A stretch of 14,137 bases of DNA from Methanobacteriota archaeon. Lineage in GTDB: Archaea > Thermoplasmatota > Thermoplasmata > RBG-16-68-12. Under the pieces are notes generated by a model. That model did no database searches, was not told the origin of the DNA, and saw only the letters and a program-made list of their open reading frames with translations. Position 1 is the stretch's first letter. Every line of letters begins with the position of its first letter. The stretch covers positions 1 to 14,137 of the forward strand of contig VBMC01000030.1 in the NCBI GenBank assembly GCA_005879015.1, in the 5' to 3' direction. Below, in pieces: positions 28 to 11,581 of this stretch. Made by a program: the position numbers and the translations under genes.

Positions 28-55
28 AAGGCGACTCTCGCGCACGTGGACAAAG

Positions 56-64
56 CTATTTATG
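56..64. promoter_or_regulatory. TATA-like element between herA and a possible divergent gene
   Basis: The sequence is CTATTTATG on the plus strand and CATAAATAG on the minus strand. On the minus strand it looks like a normal archaeal TATA box and sits about 33 nt from the ATG at 27. On the plus strand a start site about 25 nt downstream would fall near 86, leaving a leader of about 17 nt before the ATG at 103. It would then lie inside the reading frame if the GTG at 46 were the herA start, which is one reason to prefer 103. Confidence 0.3.
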
Positions 65-102
65 CGGTCGCCCAGTTATCGCGCCGCGCATGGGATGCAC
101 GC

Positions 103-1593
103 ATGGAATCTGCGGCCCACCATAGGCCTTCCGCTCACCATGGCGACGGTTTTGTCGGCGTGATCTACGGCGACATCGGCACGACCGCGTTCCGCTGTTC
201 CGTCGCGGAGGCCGTGGAACGGAACGAGTTCGTGCAGGTTCAGCACGAGACGTGCGGCATGGTCCTTGGCCGGGTCGACGAGATCGAACGGAAGACGGAC
301 CTCTCTTTAGACCGTGCGCAACTCCTGGGAGACGGCAATCCCATCGACGTGGAGGAGCGGGTGTCCGCCCAGATCAGCGTGATTGGATATCGTGACGATC
401 GGGGTCTTCTCCAGGTTCCGCGGACCCCTTTTCGCGCCGGAGAGCCTGTCCACCGCGCCGAGACCGCGACGATCGAAGAGGTGATCGGCCTGACGGAGGA
501 CAAGAAACACGGCGCCTACGTCGGCCTCTTGGCGGGTCATGAGGTGCCCGTCTATCTGGACATCAACGCGATGGTCCAGAAGCACGTATCGATCCTGGCC
601 AAAACGGGAGGCGGGAAATCGTACATCGCGGGCGTCCTCATCGAGGAGCTGATGAAACACCACGTGACGTGCGTGATCCTTGATCCGCACGGTGAATACG
701 CGTCCCTCCGGGAGAAGGGGAAGTCGCCTCACGGTGCCACGCGATTTCATGTCGAGCCCCGTGCCTACGCGGACGCGATACAGGTGTTCTCGCCGGACAC
801 GAAGGTGAATCCGGGGAGTCGGCCGCTCAAGTTCACGCTGAGCAACCTCGACGCTCGAGACATCTTGTCGCTCACCGGCTCTGCGAGGGTTCGGACCCAC
901 CTCACAGCCTTGCGCAAGGCCCTCGACCTGCTGCGGCAGGCGACGAAGGACTACACGATTCGGGACATTGTGCGAGTACTCGAGCGCGAGGAGGATCCTC
1001 AGAACGCCTCCCTGATCGACGAACTCGAGTACCTGAGCGAAGTCGAAATCTTTGCCAAGGAAGGCACCCGGATCGACGAACTCGTGATCAAAGGGAAGAC
1101 GACGATTATCAACTTGAAAGGGGTCCCACCGGATATCCAGGAACTCGTCGTGAATCGCCTGGCGACCGCGATGTTCGAATTACGAAAGCTCGGTCGGATC
1201 CCGCCCATGATGCTGGTCGTGGAGGAGGCCCACAACTTTTGTCCGCAGGTCGGGCAGGTCGCGTCGTCGAAGGTGTTCCGGTCCCTGGCCTCCGAAGGCC
1301 GCAAGTTCGGATTGGGCCTTGTGATCATCACCCAGCGGGCGGCGAAGGTCGACAAGAACGTGCTGAGCCAGTGCAACACCCAAGTCATCCTGAAAGTCAC
1401 GAACCCGAACGATCTGAAGGCGATCATCGCCAGTGTGGAAGGGCTCACGACGTCGATGGCAGAGGAAATCTCTCGCCTCCCGATCGGAGTCGCCATCATG
1501 ACGGGCGGCGGACTTGAGATGCCTTTGATGGTGGAAGTGCGTCCGCGGGAGACGCGACACGGCGGAGAAAGCGTGAAGGTCATCGAGGACTGA
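103..1593 (+). CDS. herA: HerA-type DNA helicase/translocase ATPase
   Basis: This is a HerA-FtsK superfamily hexameric DNA-pumping ATPase. In archaea it works with the NurA nuclease and Mre11-Rad50 in end resection for homologous recombination; none of those partners is in the window. Numbered from ATG 103 (496 aa), a beta-rich HAS-barrel-like N-terminus spans about residues 17-125. The Walker A motif AKTGGGKS is at 166-173, followed by ILDPHGEY at about 192-199. The Walker B motif MMLVVEEAH is at 369-377, and a sensor/arginine-finger stretch with GLVIITQR is at about 404-412. The length is normal for archaeal HerA. The frame stays open to a GTG at 46, which would give 515 aa, but those extra 19 residues cover a TATA-like sequence and precede the usual domain start. 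Family identity is firm; the start is the uncertain part. Confidence 0.93.
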   Translation: MESAAHHRPSAHHGDGFVGVIYGDIGTTAFRCSVAEAVERNEFVQVQHETCGMVLGRVDEIERKTDLSLDRAQLLGDGNPIDVEERVSAQISVIGYRDDRGLLQVPRTPFRAGEPVHRAETATIEEVIGLTEDKKHGAYVGLLAGHEVPVYLDINAMVQKHVSILAKTGGGKSYIAGVLIEELMKHHVTCVILDPHGEYASLREKGKSPHGATRFHVEPRAYADAIQVFSPDTKVNPGSRPLKFTLSNLDARDILSLTGSARVRTHLTALRKALDLLRQATKDYTIRDIVRVLEREEDPQNASLIDELEYLSEVEIFAKEGTRIDELVIKGKTTIINLKGVPPDIQELVVNRLATAMFELRKLGRIPPMMLVVEEAHNFCPQVGQVASSKVFRSLASEGRKFGLGLVIITQRAAKVDKNVLSQCNTQVILKVTNPNDLKAIIASVEGLTTSMAEEISRLPIGVAIMTGGGLEMPLMVEVRPRETRHGGESVKVIED

Positions 1594-1895: not shown

Positions 1896-3197
1896 ATGGT
1901 CGCAATCGCTCAGGACCCCATTCGGGACAGATCTTGGAAGCCCGCGCCCGATCATCCTGTGGCTCCCGCGGCTTCCGTCAGTCCCCCCCGGGTACCGCGC
2001 ATCGCCCTGTACTCGCAGGGTATGGTCGGCTTCGGCCACATTCGGCGTAACGCTTCGATCGCACAAGCCCTGCGCCATTCCACGCTCCAGCCAGACATCA
2101 TGTTGATTGCCGAAGCCTGGCAAGCCGGGGCGCTCCTCATGCCTCCCGGCGTGGACTGCGTAACGCTGCCAGCCCTCCGTCGGGACGCCGACGGTGGCTA
2201 CAACCCCCGTTTCCTCCTCGATGTCTCCGACGGGGAACTGATCGCCTTGCGAACTCGGGTGATTCGCAGTGCGATGGAGGTATTCGACCCGGACCTGCTG
2301 GTCGTGGACTACTTGCCGCTCGGTGTCGCCGGTGAACTCGCTCCAACCCTGGAATTCTTGAAACGGCGGGGCAAGACCCGCCTGGTGCTTGGCCTTCGCG
2401 ATGTCCTCTACGACCCTGAGACCGTGAAGCGTTCGTGGGCGAACCAGGACAACCTCGACGCGATCCAGAATTACTACGATTCCGTCTGGATTTACGGCGA
2501 TCCCACCGTCTTTGACCCACTTCGCGAATACGAACTCATGGAGTCTGTGGCGACCAAGGCGCGACACACGGGATATCTGGACCAACGCCCTCGGCTTGAG
2601 TATGCGAAGGCGGAGGCCGCGCCCCTTGTAGCGAATCTTCCGTCGGGCAAGATCGCGCTATGTCTCGTCGGAGGCGGACACGACGGCGGTGCCCTCGCGG
2701 AGGCCTTCCTTCAGAGCGATTTGCCTCTCGATACGACGGGCGTCCTCGTGACCGGTCCGTTGATGCCCTGGGAAGATCGCCAGCATGTCCGCCTCGAGGC
2801 CGAGCGACGCCCCCAGTTCCGCGTCCTAGACTTCGTGCACGACCCGACCCCGCTGATCGACCGCGCTGATCGGATCATCGCCATGGGGGGGTACAACACG
2901 GTGTGCGAGGCCCTCTCGTTTGAGAAACACGCCTTGATCGTGCCGCGCGTGAAACCGGAGCCGGAGCAGTGGATCCGCGCCCAACGCTTCCGCGATCTCG
3001 GGCTGGTCGACGTGTTGCACCCCGGCGCGCTGAGCCCGGGGGCTTTGACGGAATGGCTCGCGAGCGACTTGGGTCCGCCTCCGGCGAGTCGAAGTCGGAT
3101 CGATTTCGACGGATTGATCCGCATACCGGCGATGGTTGCGGAGCTGCTGAACGCCCCCTTTACTCCCACGTCGGGCCACATGCCTTTACCCTTATGA
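1896..3197 (+). CDS. MurG/GT28-like glycosyltransferase, first of a tandem pair
   Basis: The protein (433 aa) has the two-domain GT-B layout of the GT28/MurG superfamily, in the predicted glycosyltransferase group COG4671. A Pro-rich leader of about 35 residues precedes the first Rossmann strand. The glycine-rich acceptor loop GFGHIRR is at 45-51, a nucleotide-sugar-domain loop VGGGHDGG at 258-265, the donor-binding motif GGYNTVCEAL at 331-340 and EQWIRA at 357-362. No membrane segment or signal peptide is visible, so it should act in the cytoplasm or at the inner membrane face. Donor and acceptor cannot be read from the sequence. It opens a co-directional operon, and its stop overlaps the next gene's start as ATGA, suggesting translational coupling to its paralogue. 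No Shine-Dalgarno site precedes the ATG. The archaeal setting argues against a peptidoglycan role. Confidence 0.88.
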   Translation: MVAIAQDPIRDRSWKPAPDHPVAPAASVSPPRVPRIALYSQGMVGFGHIRRNASIAQALRHSTLQPDIMLIAEAWQAGALLMPPGVDCVTLPALRRDADGGYNPRFLLDVSDGELIALRTRVIRSAMEVFDPDLLVVDYLPLGVAGELAPTLEFLKRRGKTRLVLGLRDVLYDPETVKRSWANQDNLDAIQNYYDSVWIYGDPTVFDPLREYELMESVATKARHTGYLDQRPRLEYAKAEAAPLVANLPSGKIALCLVGGGHDGGALAEAFLQSDLPLDTTGVLVTGPLMPWEDRQHVRLEAERRPQFRVLDFVHDPTPLIDRADRIIAMGGYNTVCEALSFEKHALIVPRVKPEPEQWIRAQRFRDLGLVDVLHPGALSPGALTEWLASDLGPPPASRSRIDFDGLIRIPAMVAELLNAPFTPTSGHMPLPL

Positions 3198-4414
3198 ACG
3201 CATCCGTGAGCAACCGGACTCGCACGTTCCTGATGTACGCCCAGGATGGCAAAGGGATGGGGCACATCACCCGGACCACGACGATCGCTAAGCACCTCCT
3301 CGCGGCGAATCCGAATTGGGTCGCCTATATCACGACGGAGTCCCCGGTCATCGGGGAGTTCACTCTGCCGGATCGGTGCGACTATCTGAAGTTGCCCCGG
3401 CGAATGAGCCCGACTACGTTGGTCGAGACGGAGTCCGAGCATGAGGCAGCTATCGATTACTTCCGGATTCACGTCCGATCCCGTATCCTCCGAGAGGCCG
3501 CGCTTGCGTTGGCTCCCGACCTCGTGTTGGTCGACCATGAGCCCCTCGGTCGGAAAGGGGAGTTTCGCGAGGGTCTGTTTGCCTTGAAGGAGAAGTCCCC
3601 CACGACGAAGTTCGTCTTCGGTCTGCGCGACATCATGGACGATGCGACTCGGATTCGGGCCCAATGGCGAGACCTGGGTGTCTACGACGCCCTTGAGAAC
3701 CTGTACGACGGCATCGCCGTGTACGGCTCGTCAGACCTGTACGACGTGGCGGAGGCCTATGCGATCCCCCCGTCCGTGCGTCCCAAGTTGCACTATTGCG
3801 GGTATGTGGTCCGGGATGTCGAGTGCACAGATTCGGCCGAGATTCGCGCGCGGTACCGCGTCCCTCCAAAGGGACCCCTGGTCGTGGCGACCGTCGGCGG
3901 AGGAAGCGACGGGTATCCGATGTTGGAGGCCGCTCAGGCAGCCGTCCAACAGGTGCAGTCGGCGCATCCGGATCTCAACGCCATCTTCGTGACCGGACCG
4001 CTCATGCCCATGGAACAGCAGGAGAAGCTGCGGGCGCGGGCCACGTCGACGTGCCGCGTTCTGTCCCGCGCCGACAACTTTCAACTCATGGCGGCGGCCG
4101 ACGCCATCCTCAGCATGGGCGGCTACAACAGCGTGTGCGAAGCGCTCTACGTCGGGCGACCCTTCGTGATCGTGCCTCGGTCCACACACAAGATCGAGCA
4201 GCAGATCCGCGCCGAGACGCTCGCGGCGCACGGCCTCGCTCGATGGATCCATCCCAAGGACCTGAACGGCGGCGAAAGCCTGGCACAGGCTCTGGAATGG
4301 GCGTTGACCCAGGATCCACGGGACCACGCCCAACTCGTTCAAAAGATCATCCCCTCCTTCGACGGAGCTTCAAGCTTGACTGCCTACGTTTCTGGCTGGC
4401 TGAGTGACACCTGA
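3194..4414 (+). CDS. MurG/GT28-like glycosyltransferase, second of a tandem pair
   Basis: This 406-aa GT-B glycosyltransferase is paralogous to the preceding gene. Matching landmarks appear in the same order: GMGHITR at 21-27, a DLVLVDHEPLG stretch at about 109-119, FGLRD at 142-146, VGGGSDG at 234-240, VTGPLMP at 266-272, GGYNSVCEAL at 309-318 and EQQIRA at 335-340. The frame is open further upstream (to 2969) inside the first gene. The ATG at 3194 is preferred because it forms an ATGA overlap with the upstream stop and removes residues that have no counterpart in the paralogue. Divergence from its partner suggests the two act on different acceptors or add successive sugars; that is inference. 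No signal peptide or membrane segment is seen. Confidence 0.88.
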   Translation: MNASVSNRTRTFLMYAQDGKGMGHITRTTTIAKHLLAANPNWVAYITTESPVIGEFTLPDRCDYLKLPRRMSPTTLVETESEHEAAIDYFRIHVRSRILREAALALAPDLVLVDHEPLGRKGEFREGLFALKEKSPTTKFVFGLRDIMDDATRIRAQWRDLGVYDALENLYDGIAVYGSSDLYDVAEAYAIPPSVRPKLHYCGYVVRDVECTDSAEIRARYRVPPKGPLVVATVGGGSDGYPMLEAAQAAVQQVQSAHPDLNAIFVTGPLMPMEQQEKLRARATSTCRVLSRADNFQLMAAADAILSMGGYNSVCEALYVGRPFVIVPRSTHKIEQQIRAETLAAHGLARWIHPKDLNGGESLAQALEWALTQDPRDHAQLVQKIIPSFDGASSLTAYVSGWLSDT

Positions 4415-4452
4415 ATGTGCCGCCGAACCGACGCCCGGAAGCGAATGTCAAC

Positions 4453-4458
4453 GGGGGA
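4453..4458 (+). promoter_or_regulatory. Purine-rich ribosome-binding-like site favouring the start at 4465
   Basis: GGGGGA lies 7 bases before the ATG at 4465 and directly abuts the in-frame ATG at 4459. An in-frame GTG at 4417, two bases after the upstream stop, is the competing start. The site is not a perfect match to the expected GGAGGT, so it tips the choice of start but does not settle it. Confidence 0.35.
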
Positions 4459-4464
4459 ATGGGC

Positions 4465-5445
4465 ATGAATCCGGCGGAGTCCCTCCAGCCGGACGAGACC
4501 CACGCCGTGTTGAGCGGAGCGCTGCGCGAATTGGAGGGAGTTGACGCTCGGCTCGAGGGTTGGGCCGCGGACGATACCTTCACGCCGTTCGGGAAGCGAC
4601 GCGTGGTGCGGTATGAGCTAGAGGCCCGGTTGGCCGGGACCCCTCACGTCCGTCGATACCGATGGCTGGGAAAATTCTACGATCGGGATGAAGACGCCCG
4701 TAGAGTCGCCACGGTCCTCCGTGAGCTGGGGGCATCCAACGGCTCCGCTGGATTCGGTCTCGCGGTTCCGAGCGTCCTCGCCTATCACGCGCCTCGGCGC
4801 CTCTTGTTGTTGACGTACGAGTCCGGCGAGTCGATGACGACGGCGATGGCGCAGGACACGGAGACGATTCTAGCCGCGATCGGGCGCGCCCTAGCGACCT
4901 TGCACTCCCTCCCCATCGCCCCGACTCGGACGCTCTTTCCCAACGCGGCCCTCGAGGATATCCGGCCAAGGGTCCGGGATCTTTGCGTGCGGTTTCCCGG
5001 CGAGGCCGGTTCCCTCGAGAGCGCCCTCGAGGCCTTGGAGCGCGATGCGCCGTCCTTTCCCTCGGAGCCGTCCTTCGTCCATGGCGACTTCGGCCCCGCC
5101 AATCTCCTCTGGCGAGCGGGTCATGTCGTCGTCTTGGATTTCGACAAATGCGCGCTCGGCGACCCGGCCTGTGACCTGGGCAACCTGTTCGCCCAGTTGT
5201 TCCGAACCACGATTAAGAGGCCGGAAGTCCTACGGGACTTCCCCTACGCACGCGCGACGGTCCTCAAGTCCTACGTCCGATGGTCTCCGACCGATTCGGA
5301 TCTGGACTCGCGGGTCGCATGGTATGAGCGGGCTACACTTCTGCGGAAAATTCATGGATTGCTCTTCAGCAAGAGTCGGGACCAACATCCGGAGGCGGTT
5401 CGACAGCGTCAAGCCGAAGCGGTCCAGTTGTTGAAGATGGAATAG
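4465..5445 (+). CDS. APH-family small-molecule kinase (aminoglycoside/choline kinase-like)
   Basis: The protein (326 aa from ATG 4465) is a phosphotransferase with the eukaryotic-kinase-like fold of aminoglycoside, choline and homoserine kinases. The N-lobe strands include RRVVRYELEA at about 45-54 and LGKFYD at 68-73, with K70 as the likely ATP-binding lysine. The catalytic loop HGDFGPANLL is at 206-215, with D208 as the catalytic base and N213 as a metal ligand. The metal-binding segment VLDFDKCALGDP is at 223-234. A GTG at 4417 would add 16 residues. The substrate is unknown; position between glycosyltransferases and an exporter suggests a sugar or glycosylated product. Real drug-resistance enzymes are only one branch of this family, so a resistance role should not be assumed. 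It is probably cytoplasmic. Confidence 0.85.
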   Translation: MNPAESLQPDETHAVLSGALRELEGVDARLEGWAADDTFTPFGKRRVVRYELEARLAGTPHVRRYRWLGKFYDRDEDARRVATVLRELGASNGSAGFGLAVPSVLAYHAPRRLLLLTYESGESMTTAMAQDTETILAAIGRALATLHSLPIAPTRTLFPNAALEDIRPRVRDLCVRFPGEAGSLESALEALERDAPSFPSEPSFVHGDFGPANLLWRAGHVVVLDFDKCALGDPACDLGNLFAQLFRTTIKRPEVLRDFPYARATVLKSYVRWSPTDSDLDSRVAWYERATLLRKIHGLLFSKSRDQHPEAVRQRQAEAVQLLKME

Positions 5446-5499
5446 CCATGCGCGATCAACCGAGACAACGGAATCAGCCGCCCGTTTCGGGTCAGCCCC

Positions 5500-6927
5500 T
5501 TGACTGGGAGAGTGGGTCCAATCCTGAGTGACGAACGGTTCGCCGCCGGCCGGACGGAGGGCTTCCCTTTCGATCCCGACTTTCCGCAACTGCCAATCGC
5601 AACGAATCCCGACCTGATGCTCGACATCTTTCGAGCAAAGCTGAAGCCGGTCGCGGACAGAACGTACGAAATCCAAGACTGCAAGCCGTTTCGCTTCCGG
5701 TGCCGGCAGTCGAAGTCACGGCATGTGTTGCAATACAACCTACGCATCGCGGATCCGTCTACGGGCCGCCGATGGAATCAGCCGGTGACCGGCGTACTGT
5801 ATGCCGACGAAAGCAAAGCCGAGCGGCGGTGGCGGGAGATGCAGGCCAAGGATCCCCGCCGGGGAATTCCTTCCGAGTGGCTCACGTTTGAACCCGTCAG
5901 CATCCTTCCTGGCCTCCGAATGCTGGTCCAGATCTTCCCCTTTGATCGGAGACTCCGGACCCTCGGGCCGGTGATGGGAGACGCGACGCGATGTGTCGAT
6001 CCTTTACTCCTGGACCGTCTCGGTCCCGGCGAATGGGAAGTAGAGGAGCGGACAATCGAAACGGCGAGGTACCGGACCGAGCGTGGGGCCGTTCTCCGCT
6101 ACATGATCCGAGCACGCGATGTCCGATCGGCTCGGCGCGAGACCTTGGCCTGCTACTTGAAAGTCTATCGAAACGAGCATGGCGCAGAAACGTGGCAATT
6201 CCTGCAATCGATGTCTGGCAGGGCCGGAGGCGGACCACCGCCCTACGACGTGATTCGGCCGATTGCCTATTTGCGCGAGCACCGCACCCTCGTGATCGAA
6301 GAGGCTCCCGGCTCTTCGCTGAGCCGACTGCTGCTTCGAGCGGCAGATCCGTCCGAGGCGGTACGACCCGCAGCACGGGCCTTGGCGGCTTTCCACCAAG
6401 ATGATGTCCCGACCACGCGACACGAAACGCTCGCGGACGGATTGAAAGCCATTCGGAAAGCGGCAACTCTCGTCGAGTGGACGTGTCCCGGATCGAGGGA
6501 TGCCATCCAAGCGATTATGGCCGAGGTTACGGCTGGCTTGGAAGAGGCGTCCCCTACGCCGATCCATGGAGACCTGAAGCCGGATCATGTCTTCGTGTCC
6601 GGCCAGCAGGTCGTCTTCATCGATCTCGACTCGGTCGCGCTCGGCGACCCCGTTCGGGACGTGGCATCCTTTTTCGCCCATCTGGCGAGCAGGGCCGGGA
6701 TGCGTTCGATGCCGGCGGACCGGGCTTGTGCAACGGCGAGCGCCTTCGTCGAAGAATACTTCCGCCATGCACCGAGTTCATGGCGTGAACGCCTCCCACT
6801 GCACTGCGCGGGCGCTTTCCTTGAGGTGGCGGCAGGCATCTTCAGGGCTCAAGAGCCGGGTTGGCGGGAGACGATCCCTTGGATCATCCAAGCGGCGCAA
6901 CGCAGCTGCCAGGAGGTTCCTGAATGA
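5500..6927 (+). CDS. Large APH-family kinase with a duplicated N-lobe-like segment
   Basis: This 475-aa phosphotransferase is about 150 residues longer than its neighbour. The C-terminal half is a complete kinase: K221 in LKVYRN is the likely ATP lysine, HGDLKPDHV at 356-364 is the catalytic loop (D358 the base), and IDLDSVALGDP at 374-384 is the metal site. The loop has His at 363 where Asn is usual. The N-terminal half holds a second N-lobe-like segment (about 64-115) whose lysine position is Val99. The start is unsettled: TTG 5500 and GTG 5512 are the in-frame options, neither with a good ribosome-binding site, and an ATG at 5448 just after the upstream stop opens a different frame. Its last bases hold the Shine-Dalgarno site of the exporter gene and overlap its start (ATGA). 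The substrate is unknown. Confidence 0.82.
   Translation: MTGRVGPILSDERFAAGRTEGFPFDPDFPQLPIATNPDLMLDIFRAKLKPVADRTYEIQDCKPFRFRCRQSKSRHVLQYNLRIADPSTGRRWNQPVTGVLYADESKAERRWREMQAKDPRRGIPSEWLTFEPVSILPGLRMLVQIFPFDRRLRTLGPVMGDATRCVDPLLLDRLGPGEWEVEERTIETARYRTERGAVLRYMIRARDVRSARRETLACYLKVYRNEHGAETWQFLQSMSGRAGGGPPPYDVIRPIAYLREHRTLVIEEAPGSSLSRLLLRAADPSEAVRPAARALAAFHQDDVPTTRHETLADGLKAIRKAATLVEWTCPGSRDAIQAIMAEVTAGLEEASPTPIHGDLKPDHVFVSGQQVVFIDLDSVALGDPVRDVASFFAHLASRAGMRSMPADRACATASAFVEEYFRHAPSSWRERLPLHCAGAFLEVAAGIFRAQEPGWRETIPWIIQAAQRSCQEVPE
6911..6917 (+). promoter_or_regulatory. Strong Shine-Dalgarno site for the ABC exporter gene
   Basis: AGGAGGT lies 6 bases before the ATG at 6924, inside the last codons of the upstream kinase gene. 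It is the clearest ribosome-binding site in the window and fixes the exporter start. It also shows that this lineage uses Shine-Dalgarno initiation for internal operon genes, while its promoter-proximal genes look leaderless or nearly so. Confidence 0.75.
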
Positions 6928-9317
6928 CCGGATCAGACGAGGGACCGGAAGACCAAGAGAAGCGGTCGCCGCGGAGGGGCATGAATCGAGAAGAGGAAAA
7001 TGAGCCCGCGGCCGAGCGATCGTACTCGGAGCTCCTCGACCGGATTCGCGCGACGGACGAACGGTATGCGGAGCTCCTGGACGAGCTGAGGTCCCTCAGC
7101 GAGCCGAGACCGTTTGCCGGCGGGCGCGGGACCCGCTCGACGACCGAAACAACCTTGTCGAATTCCGAATCGGGGCGCGTTCGTCTCAGGGACATCCCCA
7201 TGACCCGGCGCCGCCGGATCGCCAAGTCGGTCGCGGTGATCCTCACTGGCCTCTCTGTCTTTGCGTGGCTGCTCGGCTATCTGGCGTCCGTCTACAACGT
7301 ACAAGTGGCGTTGTTCGCCCTCCCGTGGGAATTCGGCCGCTCGTTCCTCTCCGATTTCCAGCTCTTGCTCTTGCAGACTATCGCACCGATTTTCGCCTGG
7401 GGTGTCTGGGGCGTCCTCGCCGCTCGCGAATGGCGGCGATGGAAGCGAGCTCACGATGTCGAATCCTCGGACCGACCTAGTTCCGATATCTCTCCGCCGC
7501 GGGTCCCTGGGACGAGCCCGTCCGCGGTCCAGGGCAATCTCGAAGCGGGTCGAAAGACCCTCCGCCGACTCTTGTCCTACGTGAGACCCCACTGGCCGTA
7601 TGCGGCTGGGGTCATGGGTGGACTCGTCATCGCGGCCGTGATGGACCTGACGCAAGTGTGGATCCTAGCGTTCCTCTTCATCGGGCAAGTCGTTCGGCTG
7701 GGACACGTGGAACTTCTTCCAAATGTGCTGCTCCTGCTTGGCACAACCTTTGCCGTCAAAGAGATCTCCTCGTTTCTCAAGGACTATCTGTCGGAGATTT
7801 TGGCCCAGAAAACCGTTCACAAACTCCGCTCCGACTTGTACGAGAACATCGAGCGAATGCCCATGAGCTTCCTCGATACATCGCGGTCCGGTGAACTCAT
7901 CTCACGCGTGGTCAGCGACACGAACGAGGTGGAGAGGGTCCTCACGGACAACGTCGCGGATTTCCTCTCGAATGCGGTCATGGTCGCGGGCGCCCTCGGC
8001 CTATTGTTCTTCGTGAACACGAGACTCGCTTTACTCGTCACGCCCCCCGCTCTCGTCATGGTCATCGTCGTGAACCGATTCAAGAAGTCCATCAAACAGA
8101 CCTCGAGGAAAATCCGCGAAGCGGTCGCCGAACTCACCGCGAAGGCCTTCGAGGTCATCTCCGGGCTCCGTATCGTGAAGAGTTTCCGGATGGAGCACCA
8201 CGAGGCGAACGCGTTTCGCGATCGGTCCTGGGCGATCGCCCGGGCCAAGGTCCGCCTCGCTCGGCTTTCCGGAGCCTATTCCTCGACCGTTGATTTCCTG
8301 ACCTTGTGTTCGCTCGCGGTGTTCGTCTGGTTCTCGGCGCCGGCCGTGACCAGCGGCGACCTGACGGTCGCAGTAGCGGTCGCCTTCCTAGGGTACATGG
8401 ACAAGGTGTTCAAGCCTCTCGTCGTCCTCAGCAAGGTCAATTTCACGGTCCAGAAGGCCGTGGCGGCCGCGGACCGCATCTTCGAATTCATGGATGCGAA
8501 GGTGGAAATCCTGGATGCGCCCGACAGTCTCGTGCCGCAAACGATCGAAGGACGCATCCAATTCGACGGGGTCACGTTCGGATATCGGCCGAATCGATAC
8601 GTACTCGAGGATTTCTCGTTGACGATCGAGCCGGGGGAGACGGTCGCGGTCGTCGGATCGAGCGGTGTGGGCAAATCCACGATCGTCAACCTGCTCCTCC
8701 GGTTCTACGAGCCGATCGCGGGCCGGATTTTGATTGACGGATACCCCCTCGATCGGTTGAACTTGGGCTGCCTACGGAAGAAAATCGGCCTCGTCCTTCA
8801 GGAGCCGGTCCTCTTCTCGGGAACGATTCGAGAGAATATCCTGTACGGCGACGTAGACGCTTCCGAGGAGAACGTGGTGCAAGCGGCGCAATCCGCAAAT
8901 GCCCACGATTTCATCCGAGGCCTGCCGAAGGGGTATGACACACAGATTGGCGAGCGTGGAGTGACCCTCTCTGTAGGCCAGAGGCAACGGATTGCGATTG
9001 CACGTGTCCTCTTGAAGAACCCGAGCATCCTCATTCTCGATGAGGCGACATCGAACATTGACTCTGAGTCCGAATCGCTCATCCAAGACGCCTTGCACAA
9101 GCTTGCACAACGCAGGACGATGATCGTCATCGGGCACCGGCTCTCCTCAATCATTGACGCGGACCGGATCGTGGTGCTCGAGGATGGAGGAATCGCTGAG
9201 GTCGGGACCCACCAAGATCTGCTAGGGAAAGGAGGGGTTTACGCGCGGCTGTACGAGGCCCAGATCGATCGGGGAGCTCCCGAGGAGGCGCCACACAACC
9301 AACTCGACGCCGTGTAA
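6924..9317 (+). CDS. ABC exporter (fused permease-ATPase, MsbA-like) with extra N-terminal domain
   Basis: This 797-aa half-transporter should work as a dimer in the membrane, pumping a compound outward with ATP. From about residue 211 it follows the type IV exporter plan: six membrane segments between about 224 and 495, then the nucleotide-binding domain. That domain has A-loop Y554, Walker A GSSGVGKST at 578-586, Q-loop Q626, signature LSVGQ at 682-686, Walker B ILILDE at 702-707 with catalytic E707, D-loop SNIDSE at 710-715 and H-loop H738. All catalytic residues are present. Ahead of this lie about 210 unusual residues: an acidic, probably coiled segment (33-59) and two further membrane segments (about 102-122 and 144-167). 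The gene overlaps the upstream kinase by ATGA and has a strong ribosome-binding site. The likely cargo is the product of the glycosyltransferases and kinases; that is inference from context. Confidence 0.92.
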   Translation: MTGSDEGPEDQEKRSPRRGMNREEENEPAAERSYSELLDRIRATDERYAELLDELRSLSEPRPFAGGRGTRSTTETTLSNSESGRVRLRDIPMTRRRRIAKSVAVILTGLSVFAWLLGYLASVYNVQVALFALPWEFGRSFLSDFQLLLLQTIAPIFAWGVWGVLAAREWRRWKRAHDVESSDRPSSDISPPRVPGTSPSAVQGNLEAGRKTLRRLLSYVRPHWPYAAGVMGGLVIAAVMDLTQVWILAFLFIGQVVRLGHVELLPNVLLLLGTTFAVKEISSFLKDYLSEILAQKTVHKLRSDLYENIERMPMSFLDTSRSGELISRVVSDTNEVERVLTDNVADFLSNAVMVAGALGLLFFVNTRLALLVTPPALVMVIVVNRFKKSIKQTSRKIREAVAELTAKAFEVISGLRIVKSFRMEHHEANAFRDRSWAIARAKVRLARLSGAYSSTVDFLTLCSLAVFVWFSAPAVTSGDLTVAVAVAFLGYMDKVFKPLVVLSKVNFTVQKAVAAADRIFEFMDAKVEILDAPDSLVPQTIEGRIQFDGVTFGYRPNRYVLEDFSLTIEPGETVAVVGSSGVGKSTIVNLLLRFYEPIAGRILIDGYPLDRLNLGCLRKKIGLVLQEPVLFSGTIRENILYGDVDASEENVVQAAQSANAHDFIRGLPKGYDTQIGERGVTLSVGQRQRIAIARVLLKNPSILILDEATSNIDSESESLIQDALHKLAQRRTMIVIGHRLSSIIDADRIVVLEDGGIAEVGTHQDLLGKGGVYARLYEAQIDRGAPEEAPHNQLDAV

Positions 9318-9593
9318 CTCCCAGCGACCTTGTCACGCCACTCCGGAGGCTCCGGTCCCGGAGACAGGGCGAACGCGGATGGGGAGAGAGATATCGCCCG
9401 CCTGTCACCTTTCAGATTTACGTCATGCCCGCCTAAGGAACTGAGTTGTCGCCGACCGAATTCGACAAGTGTCAAAACACCTCTGTGGTACAACTGGCCC
9501 AACATGTGGCTGACCTGATTACAATCGGGGCCAGATAGGCCGCAGTTGGCGACGAAACCTTGATAGGACCCATCTCGTACGAGCCCGGAGCGC
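9318..9593. other. 276-base spacer with several short inverted repeats
   Basis: No gene is supported here. Four perfect or near-perfect inverted repeats are visible: CTCCGG 9341-9346 with CCGGAG 9358-9363, 24 bases after the exporter stop; TTGTCG 9446-9451 with CGACAA 9463-9468; CTGGCCC 9494-9500 with GGGCCAG 9528-9534; and, inside the last, the quasi-palindrome CTGATTACAATCGG at about 9515-9528. The first could mark the operon end and the others could bind a regulator or fold as leader RNA. In GC-rich DNA some such repeats arise by chance. Confidence 0.4.
9554..9567 (+). promoter_or_regulatory. BRE/TATA-like promoter of the metallophosphatase gene
   Basis: GAAACCTTGATAGG resembles an archaeal BRE plus TATA box, and its first half matches the AACCTT of the folC promoter farther right. 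The TATA-like part (TTGATA, 9560-9565) is about 31 nt upstream of the ATG at 9594, implying a leader of only a few bases. It suggests that the phosphatase can be transcribed separately from the exporter operon. Confidence 0.4.
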
Positions 9594-11207
9594 ATGAAGG
9601 GGATGACCGCGACGGACTTGGGACCCCGCACGGGCCGTATCGATATTCGCGAAAGGGGAAGGGCTTTCTTCCGAACGAGCCGGAAGTTTCGAGCGCTCGG
9701 CACCCCCCCTGGCCGTGAGAGGAAGTCCCACCTGCGGCAGGGGGACGGCGTCGAGCCGCGCGCGAGGGCCGTCCGCGTCAAGCCCGATCCCGACAACGAG
9801 CTGTTAGAGGAACTTAGGAAGTCGTTGACATGGATGAAAGCCCTCGAAGGCCTAAAGGCGGATCGAACTCCGAAACAGGCATCGATCGCGGGCAGCGACA
9901 TCAAGGAACCGCGACGAATCCCAAGAAAGCGGCCCGAGACCGTCATTCTCCGCCGGAGAGCGGTCGCCATCCTCGCTCTCTCTCTCCTCATCGCTGCGGC
10001 GGCGGGATGGGTCCTGTTCCAGAAAGGAGCGGTCCAAAAGAGTCCGTTCGATAGCGCCCAGCCGCGCTGGAAGGACGAGTCCACGACGCACTTCACGTTT
10101 GCCGCCGCGGGAGACTTTGCGGGACCAGGCAATAACGATTCCCTAGGCCTCGTGGGACGTGCTCGAACGGCTGGAATGTCGTTCTTCCTCGCCCTCGGAG
10201 ATCTGGGATACACGACGGACGCACCCGGGTGGTGCACGCAAATGAAACGGCTTCTGCCGGAGATCGTCATCGTCGCCGGCGGCGACGGGAGCAACGCGGA
10301 CGGAAGCATGTCGCAGTACGTCGCGAGCTGCCCATACCCGCTCTCCTCCCCGATGGTCGCGGGCAACGGGACCCCCGGCTACGGCTACGAGTATTACTTC
10401 GACTACCCTCGGGACAAGCCCCTTGCGCGATTCATCCTGCTCTCGGCCGGGCTCTCGGGCGTCGATTACAACTACAGCCGGCAATCACCGCACACGGAGT
10501 GGGTCGAGGACACGGTCGCCAGCGCCCGAGATGCGGGAATTCCATGGGTCATTGCGGGGGTCCACAAGGAGTGCATCACGGTGGGCAACGATGGACACTG
10601 TCCCATGGGCCAGGACCTCTTCGACGAGCTCGTGGAAGCCAATGTGGACTTGATTTTGGTAGGTCACGACCATGTGTACGAGCGGAGCAAGCAGCTGAGG
10701 GTCTCGTCGAGCTGCGAATCCGTCAACTCGACGAACCAGTTCGAGCCGTCTTGCGTCGCGGCGAATGGAACCCAAGGCGTCTACACGAAAGGCGAAGGCA
10801 CCATCGTTGTTGTGCAAGGTGTTGGAGGGCGAAGCTTCGACAACGTGGCGATTGACGGAAGCGATCGGGAGATGGGCTACTTCGACGCGGTGATGGGCGC
10901 CAATGCCAACACCCAAGGGCGGCTCTCTGGCTTCGGATCCGTGTTCTACGAGGTCACGGCCAATTCGATCGGGGCGAAAACCGATTTCTGTCCGCCCGAC
11001 TCGACCGGCACCGACGGTCGTTGCACGTCAAATCCTGGCGCGGTGTTCGCAGACCAGTTTGCGATCTCGACAGGCACCGGTTTGGAGCCTATGGTATCGA
11101 GTGCCTTGTCCCTCCCTCAGGACCCCAATCAGAATGGATTCGATCAACCAGGGATTCTGCCATTGAGGGATGAGGAACCGCCTCTTCGCGTCTGGACCGC
11201 ACGTTAG
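9594..11207 (+). CDS. Membrane-anchored metallophosphatase (purple-acid-phosphatase-like)
   Basis: The 537-aa protein has a basic cytoplasmic region of about 118 residues, one membrane segment at about 121-142, and a large C-terminal metallophosphoesterase domain. An N-in topology would place the enzyme outside the cell. Motifs in order are GDF at 173-175, GDLGY at 202-206, H324 in AGVHKE and GHDH at 357-360. Where GNH(D/E) is expected, the sequence reads GGDG (229-232), so a metal-binding Asn and the catalytic His appear missing. Eight cysteines lie in the outer domain and none before the membrane segment, which fits disulfides and an external location. An ATG at 9603 is an alternative start. 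Position after the exporter suggests it may dephosphorylate an exported product, but the promoter seems separate and the altered motif leaves activity in doubt. Confidence 0.83.
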   Translation: MKGMTATDLGPRTGRIDIRERGRAFFRTSRKFRALGTPPGRERKSHLRQGDGVEPRARAVRVKPDPDNELLEELRKSLTWMKALEGLKADRTPKQASIAGSDIKEPRRIPRKRPETVILRRRAVAILALSLLIAAAAGWVLFQKGAVQKSPFDSAQPRWKDESTTHFTFAAAGDFAGPGNNDSLGLVGRARTAGMSFFLALGDLGYTTDAPGWCTQMKRLLPEIVIVAGGDGSNADGSMSQYVASCPYPLSSPMVAGNGTPGYGYEYYFDYPRDKPLARFILLSAGLSGVDYNYSRQSPHTEWVEDTVASARDAGIPWVIAGVHKECITVGNDGHCPMGQDLFDELVEANVDLILVGHDHVYERSKQLRVSSSCESVNSTNQFEPSCVAANGTQGVYTKGEGTIVVVQGVGGRSFDNVAIDGSDREMGYFDAVMGANANTQGRLSGFGSVFYEVTANSIGAKTDFCPPDSTGTDGRCTSNPGAVFADQFAISTGTGLEPMVSSALSLPQDPNQNGFDQPGILPLRDEEPPLRVWTAR

Positions 11208-11296: not shown

Positions 11297-11581
11297 ATGG
11301 ACCTGCATGCTCTCGTCGACCGGGACATTGCGCTCACAGAACGCGCTCTCGGAAAAGCTAAGATTGCGGTGCCGGAACGATCTCACCTCCGGAAGGTGGC
11401 GGAAGACTTCGTGACGATGGCCCGTTCGTACTACGCGGACGCGAAGCACTTCCGGGACGCGGGGGAGTTGGACAAGGCCCTCGCAAACGTCAACTACGCC
11501 CATGGTTGGCTCGACGCCGGCGCGCGACTAGGCCTCTTCGATGTCGGCGGCGACGACCAGCTCTTCACGCTGAGCGAGTGA
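11297..11581 (+). CDS. DUF357 family protein
   Basis: This 94-aa helical protein belongs to the small archaeal DUF357 family, whose function is not established. The family's conserved end is clear: SYYADAKHF at 44-52 and NYAHGWLDAGARLGLF at 66-81. The start ATG at 11297 gives the usual length; no Shine-Dalgarno site or strong TATA box stands out upstream (GGAAAGGGTTTTC at about 11258-11270 is the only weak candidate). No signal peptide or membrane segment is present. The gene's stop directly abuts the stop of the pantoate kinase gene on the other strand. Confidence 0.88.
   Translation: MDLHALVDRDIALTERALGKAKIAVPERSHLRKVAEDFVTMARSYYADAKHFRDAGELDKALANVNYAHGWLDAGARLGLFDVGGDDQLFTLSE

What the first reader, a model, noticed from the sequence alone, without database searches (positions are those of the whole stretch)
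1896..11207. Accessory cassette with a glycosylate-phosphorylate-export-dephosphorylate logic in an archaeon
Two GT28-like glycosyltransferases, two APH-fold kinases and a fused ABC exporter form one tightly packed operon, followed by a membrane-anchored phosphatase whose catalytic domain probably faces outward. The genes lie between core archaeal genes. Established knowledge: in streptomycin producers a kinase protects the product, ABC proteins export the phosphate form and an extracellular phosphatase releases the active compound. The same four roles occur here in the same order. That suggests a masked, exported glycoside, perhaps an antimicrobial, though a surface glycolipid or osmolyte pathway is equally open. 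No scaffold-making, aminotransferase or sugar-nucleotide genes are in the window, so the starting material must come from elsewhere.
Basis: partly seen in the sequence, partly recalled or inferred. Interest (0 to 1): 0.75.

Follow-up and report, generated by a model that had tools for sequence, protein, structure and literature searches.

The report
Mobile phosphoglycan-export cassette in soil archaea
A soil archaeon carries a swappable set of genes that seems to build, phosphorylate and export a sugar-based molecule, with relatives in many soil bacteria; the neighbouring 'phosphatase' looks catalytically dead here, so an antibiotic-style unmasking step is not supported in this genome.

Summary
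In detail: two GT28-type glycosyltransferases, two APH-fold kinases, an ABC exporter and a membrane-anchored metallophosphoesterase lie between core archaeal genes. It is a real, recurrent system. Eight of 22 family genomes have it: six whole between herA and DUF357, two across contig breaks. In six others these genes are 46-64 bp apart. GTb-KinA-KinB-ABC was swapped between species as a block. Relatives occur in soil bacteria under nine phylum-type labels.

Function: sister cassettes add GalU-like and UDP-glucose-dehydrogenase-like genes. The bacterial exporter's closest named kin (56-61%) sits on Manganitrophus plasmids beside a heparinase-like lyase and an alginate-export protein. No NRPS or PKS genes were seen. 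I favour an exported phosphorylated glycan or glycolipid over a masked antibiotic.

The phosphatase step is doubtful here: the window's enzyme lacks the GNHD motif, as do 5 of 7 cassette-adjacent copies (itself included), and it was not part of the G017-G013 block exchange. Yet unrelated predicted secreted phosphatases sit at some bacterial cassettes, so trimming outside the cell may be an optional part of the system. Nine searches of an open-access library showed no description of it.

The parts
46..1593 (+). HerA-type ATPase, left flank of the insertion site (not part of the cassette)
   Evidence: PF01935; syntenic in relatives with and without the cassette
1896..3197 (+). GTa, glycosyltransferase with GT28 C-terminal domain; GFGHIRR and GGYNTVCE motifs
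   Evidence: PF04101, motifs; 37% identical over 380 aa to a Manganitrophus plasmid GT
3194..4414 (+). GTb, GT-B glycosyltransferase (GMGHITR, GGYNSVCE)
   Evidence: PF04101/PF13528; model pLDDT 88.5; nearest PDB folds GT1 enzymes; 61-66% identical to the nine bacterial copies aligned
4417..5445 (+). KinA, APH-fold kinase; HGDFGPAN and LDFD present
   Evidence: PF01636 1.8e-26; motifs read from the translation, LDFD
5500..6927 (+). KinB, APH-fold kinase with tandem N-lobes (residues 57-145 and 179-267); true start may lie upstream
   Evidence: PF01636; AlphaFold model pLDDT 87.4; H-x-D-[LMF]-K-x-D-H and FID[LM]D in 20 of 20 aligned sequences
6924..9317 (+). ABC exporter (TMD and NBD fused) with about 200-aa N-terminal extension holding extra hydrophobic segments
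   Evidence: PF00664/PF00005; Walker A, LSVGQ, Walker B present; hydropathy; nearest NCBIfam MsbA, below its cut-off
9594..11207 (+). MPE, membrane-anchored purple-acid-phosphatase-like metallophosphoesterase; motif III (GNHD) missing
   Evidence: PF00149; PAP matches in PDB, best E 0.0012; motif comparison; TM about 124-142
11297..11581 (+). DUF357 protein, right flank of the insertion site (not part of the cassette)
   Evidence: PF04010; matches 46-64 bp from HerA in six relatives

Best explanation
This is a horizontally mobile glycan/glycolipid cassette. GTa and GTb add sugars, probably glucose or glucuronate from UDP donors, to a common cellular acceptor. KinA and KinB phosphorylate the glycoside. 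The MsbA-like exporter moves the phospho-glycoside out, to become a surface glycolipid or exported glycan. MPE is an outward-facing accessory that in this genome has probably lost phosphatase activity. Shown by sequence: gene content, insertion at a fixed site, block exchange, distribution, intact catalytic motifs in the kinases, GTs and exporter, loss of motif III in MPE. Inferred: substrates, lipid or polymer nature of the product, direction of transport, MPE inactivity.
For: Conserved unit: of 27 bacterial KinB loci, 23 have an ABC gene upstream and 20 a GTa/GTb homologue; the 4 without ABC start within about 1 kb of KinB at a contig end. GTb, KinB and KinA quick trees each put archaea on one side with the same order (window,(G017,G013)),G014. 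Mosaic: window-G017 96-97% DNA identity in four flank genes but 86-88% in GTb-ABC; window-G013 75-90% in the flanks but 85-87% in GTb-ABC, where G017-G013 is 89-93.5%. Sugar-nucleotide supply: GalU-like genes in three archaeal cassettes (below the GalU cut-off) and a nucleotide-sugar dehydrogenase nearest to UDP-glucose dehydrogenases in one. Envelope context: the bacterial cassette ABC is 56-61% identical to the ABC of Manganitrophus plasmid loci with GTs, two KinB-family kinases, heparinase-like lyase and alginate export protein. Flanks of other loci include MMPL, HlyD, MacB, a bacterial sugar transferase (PF02397) and a CDP-alcohol transferase.
Against: The heparinase-like lyase and alginate-export genes have no homologue in the window or 37 other loci. 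The archaeal exporter is not close to the bacterial one (mostly 35-39%). GTb's nearest folds are natural-product GT1 enzymes and KinB's include antibiotic kinases, which does not exclude a small-molecule product. No acceptor is identified.
Confidence: 0.5

Rival explanations
1. Phosphate-masked bioactive glycoside: kinases inactivate a glycoside, the ABC protein exports it, and a phosphatase outside the cell releases the active form, as in streptomycin (recalled) or amicoumacin.
For: Predicted secreted phosphatases of unrelated families beside the cassette: PAP-like MPE in 7 of 8 archaeal cassettes, beta-propeller phytase in three bacterial lineages, PF04185 lipoprotein-like protein right after KinB in two related Gemmatimonadetes. 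Phytase position is unlikely to be chance: 3 of 5 genes after collapsing an identical pair, in 0.38% of the DNA (binomial 5e-7); 2 of 3 if a fragment and a weak match are dropped too (4e-5) (noticed first, tested after). KinB's fold neighbours include corramycin and amicoumacin kinases.
Against: The window's MPE lacks motif III; 5 of 7 cassette-adjacent MPEs do. MPE was not in the G017-G013 block exchange. No NRPS, PKS or cyclitol genes among the flanking ORFs scanned. In most bacterial loci no phosphatase was found among the scanned flanks.
Confidence: 0.12
2. Multiply phosphorylated glycan whose phosphates are trimmed outside the cell: two to four kinases load phosphates and phytase, PAP-like or PF04185 enzymes recover phosphate or tune charge.
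For: Extra APH kinases in many loci; phytases act on polyphosphorylated cyclitols (established knowledge); phytase recurrence; a histidine phosphatase family gene in three of the four Manganitrophus loci (not in CP114560).
Against: The histidine phosphatase looks cytosolic by family. One phytase is a fragment (L059) and one lineage is seen through two MAG contigs with identical phytase genes. MPE has decayed in the window.
Confidence: 0.18
3. Osmolyte, storage or detoxification pathway: soluble glycosides phosphorylated and exported for tolerance or xenobiotic removal.
For: APH, GT1-like and MsbA-like proteins are typical of detoxification (established knowledge); patchy distribution.
Against: A dedicated two-GT, two-kinase operon with sugar-nucleotide supply in sisters and envelope-type neighbours in bacteria fit biosynthesis better.
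Confidence: 0.1
4. Anti-phage or conflict island at a fixed chromosomal site.
For: Site-specific presence/absence, block exchange, CHAT domain protein near one distant locus.
Against: No relevant PADLOC match; only ABC-type matches. The one scan of viral contigs found no GTb relative.
Confidence: 0.05

Closest known systems
Candidatus Manganitrophus plasmid loci (CP114557, CP114560, CP114554, CP114562), annotated MAG records; I saw no functional test
   Same: GTa-like glycosyltransferase, further GTs, two KinB-family kinases (135 and 133 bits with the KinB profile), ABC exporter 56-61% identical to that of the bacterial cassettes
   Different: They also have a heparinase-like 'alginate lyase', an 'alginate export' protein and, in three of four, radical SAM and histidine phosphatase genes; the archaeal cassettes show none of these, and the archaeal exporter is a different lineage
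MsbA-type lipid A export (phosphoglycolipid flippase) with its upstream glycosyltransferases and lipid kinase
   Same: MsbA is the best NCBIfam match of both the archaeal and a bacterial exporter (478.7 and 478.8 bits); logic of glycosylate, phosphorylate, flip (recalled)
   Different: Below the MsbA equivalog cut-off (602); no lipid A genes seen; kinases are APH-fold
Amicoumacin AmiN kinase / AmiO phosphatase self-resistance (PMC8835302, passages read); streptomycin phosphorylation (recalled; passages of PMC6804068 seen)
   Same: APH-fold kinase, exporter and phosphatase near each other
   Different: No scaffold genes seen; the window's phosphatase lacks a catalytic motif; two glycosyltransferases are central here
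Class V lanthipeptide kinase LxmK
   Same: Fold neighbour and best NCBIfam hit of KinA and KinB
   Different: 43 and 37 bits against a cut-off of 315; no precursor peptide recognised, LxmY not searched for

Membership tests
Manganitrophus-type exported-glycan (EPS-like) locus | Orthologous ABC exporter | tested here: not met
   Bacterial cassettes 56-61% identical, but the archaeal ABC is mostly 35-39% identical to the bacterial cassette ABCs and falls with other homologues of its own kind
Manganitrophus-type exported-glycan (EPS-like) locus | KinB-family kinases and a GTa/GTb-type glycosyltransferase | tested here: met
   KinB profile 134.9 and 132.7 bits; GTb profile 248.7 bits; GTa of window 37% over 380 aa
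Manganitrophus-type exported-glycan (EPS-like) locus | Uronate-polymer lyase and alginate-export protein in the locus | tested here: not met
   0 tblastn hits in the window and 37 other loci, E 1e-5
MsbA lipid A exporter | NCBIfam equivalog cut-off | tested here: not met
   478.7 bits against 602
Phosphate-masked antibiotic pathway | Scaffold biosynthesis genes beside the kinase | tested here: not met
   None in the window; none recognised among the flanking ORFs scanned in relatives, which are a part of all flanks
Phosphate-masked antibiotic pathway | Catalytically competent external phosphatase | tested here: not met
   Window MPE lacks GNHD; by sequence only; two other archaeal cassettes keep the motif
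Phosphate-masked antibiotic pathway | Bioactive product | not testable with these tools
   Needs chemistry
APH-fold small-molecule kinase | Kinase C-lobe fold and HxD / DxD catalytic residues | tested here: met
Class V lanthionine synthetase LxmK | NCBIfam equivalog cut-off | tested here: not met
   43.1 and 37.4 bits against 315
Metallophosphoesterase (PAP-like) | Motif III Asn-His (GNH[DE]) | tested here: not met
   Absent in window MPE; present in 2 of 7 cassette-adjacent MPEs, in 5 of the 33 nearest listed homologues and 70 of the 87 next listed
Known anti-phage defence systems | PADLOC model match | tested here: not met
   Only the ABC protein matched (mad3, mad8)

The most novel reading that the evidence does not exclude
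The cassette is an undescribed, cross-domain mobile system for an exported, probably multiply phosphorylated glycan or glycolipid. KinB would found a family of tandem-N-lobe sugar kinases. Host-specific predicted secreted phosphatases (phytase, PF04185, PAP-like) remodel the product outside the cell. In the window's lineage the phosphatase has become a catalytically dead, surface-exposed protein, perhaps a binder of the product.
Probability: 0.3. Interest if true: 0.75.

Novelty: new variant of a known kind. Interest (0 to 1): 0.52.

Why it matters
If right, a surface-chemistry module moves between archaea and bacteria in soil as a swappable cassette at a fixed archaeal locus. It would give a handle on envelope chemistry of uncultured soil archaea and a family of kinases with an unusual doubled N-lobe. 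The recurrence of unrelated phosphatases next to the kinases makes a clear, testable question: why phosphorylate a glycan inside and keep a phosphatase outside?

Tried and rejected
Streptomycin-like unmasking as the main reading was rejected for this genome because of MPE motif III and because MPE was not in the G017-G013 exchange. An anti-phage role was set aside: one search matched only the ABC protein and one search found no viral relative. RiPP or lanthipeptide: LxmK far below cut-off; small ORFs in the gaps 1593-1896 and 9317-9594 gave no convincing peptide gene (conservation not tested). A sigma-70 scan was uninformative and not suited to archaea. Profile search for KinB in PDB sequences: none. 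A residue-by-residue pairwise count of MPE motif III was unreliable because of a gap there and was replaced by a regular-expression count. Cassette remnants in the larger gaps (G002, G005, G019): none found by tblastn. The rows barely covered KinB's first N-lobe, so that part is untested against known folds.

Counts and limits. The 33 loci come from one scan with two peptide patterns, so absence elsewhere is weak. Bacterial labels are those of MAG records; L054 (Betaproteobacteria) and L055 (Gemmatimonadetes) hold near-identical cassettes, by transfer or misbinning. L054 and L058 carry identical phytase genes and count as one lineage. The phytase test was made after seeing the hits, and the phosphatase families were not chosen beforehand. 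Only part of the flanking ORFs was scanned with Pfam, and many contigs end near the cassette. Trees are quick ones (SH-aLRT, no bootstrap); no outgroup ABC was in the ABC tree, so replacement of the exporter is an inference from identity. A result against a simple block story: between window and G017, GTa (87%) and MPE (92%) also differ more than the flanks (96-97%), so they have a history of their own.

Papers: nine searches. Searches returned none; others returned listings of 10 of 20, 1 of 1, 10 of 843 and 5 of 1,040 papers, and none of the listed titles or abstract openings describes this cassette. Passages were read in PMC6804068 and PMC8835302; no other paper was opened.
Full report
What is there. 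The window is the whole of contig C229 of a 1.58 Mb, 66% complete genome. Between herA (46-1593) and DUF357 (11297-11581) lie GTa, GTb, KinA, KinB, ABC and MPE, all on the + strand. GTa/GTb and KinB/ABC overlap by ATGA; GTb and KinA are 2 bp apart. The catalytic signatures of both GTs, both kinases and the ABC protein are intact (and the translations). KinB has His where APH enzymes usually have Asn, in 20 of 20 sequences aligned. Its relatives on named records are labelled Euryarchaeota; Thermoplasmata is my inference from the name of one homologue (P0010).

A fixed insertion site. In the 22 genomes of the family, strong GTb hits (E below 1e-150) occur in 8: G000, G001, G006, G012, G013, G014, G017, G020. 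In six of these the herA and DUF357 matches are on one contig with 9.6-12.8 kb between them; in G006 and G014 contigs break inside the cassette, with herA next to a GT on one contig and DUF357 next to MPE on another. In G007, G008, G009, G011, G015 and G021 the two matches are 46-64 bp apart; in G002, G005 and G019 the gap is about 0.2, 0.6 and 1.5 kb without cassette remnants. For the remaining five of 22 (G003, G004, G010, G016, G018) the pair was not seen on one contig. A KinB search of 292 genomes drawn from the phylum found only the window's own genome at more than a generic level (3 of 292 at E 0.001, the other two at 6.5e-5 and 7.7e-4).

It moves as a block. GTb, KinB and KinA quick trees agree: archaeal rows are one side of a branch (SH-aLRT 88, 95, 84) and within them (window,(G017,G013)),G014. 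The flanks disagree. DNA identity of herA, DUF357, PanK and CoaBC is 96-97% for window-G017 and 75-90% for window-G013. From GTb to ABC it is 86-88% and 85-87%, and 89-93.5% for G017-G013. GTa and MPE follow the flank pattern with respect to G013 (75% and 82%), although between window and G017 they too are below the flanks (87% and 92%). So GTb-KinA-KinB-ABC was exchanged between species, without GTa and MPE in that event. G007, whose HerA is 98% identical to the window's in protein (88% in DNA), has an empty site.

Relatives in bacteria. One scan of 84,980 species genomes with a KinB alignment gave 33 loci, 6 archaeal and 27 bacterial. The bacterial MAG labels are Gemmatimonadetes, Rokubacteria, Betaproteobacteria, Verrucomicrobia, Eisenbacteria, Acidobacteria, Chloroflexi, Actinobacteria and Nitrospirae. 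Usual bacterial order is GTa-GTb-(extra kinase)-KinA-ABC-KinB. ABC lies upstream in 23 of 27, a GTa/GTb homologue in 20 of 27; the four without ABC begin at a contig end near KinB. Frequency is low: KinB in 8 of 288, 3 of 21 and 3 of 60 genomes in three bacterial orders. The archaeal ABC protein differs from the bacterial one: mostly 35-39% identity, against 50-75% for GTs and KinB in the main bacterial group and 34-52% in the distant loci, with a long branch between them. Among its 120 best listed homologues the ones that carry organism names are archaeal, one of them Bathyarchaeota at 63%. The export slot thus seems to have been filled twice, which suggests export is needed (inference). Two extra copies in G324 and G325 have GTb-KinA-KinB without ABC in the 20 kb viewed.

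What the sister cassettes add. L041, L044 and L045 carry GalU-like nucleotidyltransferases (178, 161 and 131 bits, below the cut-off of 326.8). L045, from the sister genus, also has a nucleotide-sugar dehydrogenase (434.7 bits over a cut-off of 189.8), nearest to UDP-glucose dehydrogenases but below those equivalog cut-offs. All lie inside the insertion or next to its ABC gene. This suggests UDP-glucose and UDP-glucuronate as donors. The window's genome has a related dehydrogenase elsewhere (C129, 46% identity, one stop inside). The closest named loci are on Manganitrophus plasmids: GTs, two KinB-family kinases, ABC 56-61% identical to the bacterial cassette ABC, a heparinase-like 'alginate lyase' and an 'alginate export' protein. 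They look like exported-glycan loci; I saw no functional test of them. Their lyase and export genes have no homologue in our loci, so the cassette is not filed as a member.

The phosphatase question. MPE is a PAP-like metallophosphoesterase with one membrane anchor and basic N side. Its motif III is AGGDGS where relatives with a full motif have AGNHDD. Of seven MPEs next to DUF357, only those of G012 and G006:C89 keep GNHD; the window has none, G017 and G013 read GDDG, G014 GSHD, G020 GDLE. I put 21 loci into that comparison, out of 47 matches; of the 17 matched segments that are not next to DUF357, 12 keep GNH. In the wider database 5 of the 33 nearest listed homologues and 70 of the 87 next listed have GNH[DE]; the first set holds near-copies and fragments. 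MPE occurs in 7 of 8 archaeal cassettes, not in that of G001. Loss of Asn and His should cripple this enzyme class (established knowledge); no assay was possible.

Yet phosphatases recur. A beta-propeller phytase follows the cassette in Betaproteobacteria L054 and L058 (identical genes, with a PF00149 enzyme directly after), in Eisenbacteria L060 (opposite strand), and as a fragment in Verrucomicrobia L059. In the 22 genomes searched, 5 have a phytase match, in all 6 genes or fragments, 4 of them at the cassette. With the identical pair collapsed this is 3 of 5, in loci that make up 0.38% of the DNA (binomial 5e-7); dropping the fragment and the weak match gives 2 of 3 (4e-5; post hoc). PF04185 proteins with lipoprotein-like leaders follow KinB in L064 by 12 bp and in L063 closely. 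In most other loci I found none in what was scanned, and many are cut short. I read this as an optional trimming step, lost in the window's lineage.

Verdict. The cassette is real, mobile and not described in the literature I could search (nine searches, listed under Tried and rejected). The best reading is an exported phosphorylated glycan or glycolipid; antimicrobial masking remains possible but unsupported.

Noticed in passing
window 5448-5500: Relatives' KinB proteins start at an ATG (5448 here) that is in another frame than the 5500-6927 ORF, so the window's KinB N-terminus is uncertain.
   Followed up: partly
L041:221-3773 (G006:C89): A further GTa-GTb-KinA set lies on the far side of CoaBC, outside the herA-DUF357 site.
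   Followed up: no
L058:14099-17061, L054:14103-16342: Phytase and a PF00149 metallophosphoesterase overlap by 4 bp downstream of the cassette, behind an M56/HEAT gene on the other strand.
   Followed up: partly
L054 and L055: Near-identical cassettes in MAGs labelled Betaproteobacteria and Gemmatimonadetes: recent transfer or misbinning.
   Followed up: no
L176:5875-10959 (-): 1695-aa ORF directly after KinB in an ABC-less copy of the cassette, without a Pfam match at E 0.001.
   Followed up: no
L040 (G014:C31): Second KinA-KinB pair plus an extra APH gene in tandem inside the archaeal insertion.
   Followed up: no
L070:2-3098: CHAT-domain and subtilase genes upstream of an actinobacterial variant that also has a sulfotransferase.
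   Followed up: no
plasmids collection: GTb-like proteins at about 31% identity on many rhizobial plasmids (142 Rhizobium and 80 Sinorhizobium of 274 records), context unlike this cassette in the one annotated rhizobial case viewed, an Agrobacterium.
   Followed up: partly
P0322 and P0119: An archaeal-type ABC homologue and a KinB homologue share a longest contig of 16160 bases from the same source, hinting at cassettes in further lineages.
   Followed up: no
family genomes: PAP-like metallophosphoesterases are numerous in these archaea, with up to eight matches per genome to the MPE query, some of them only N-terminal.
   Followed up: no
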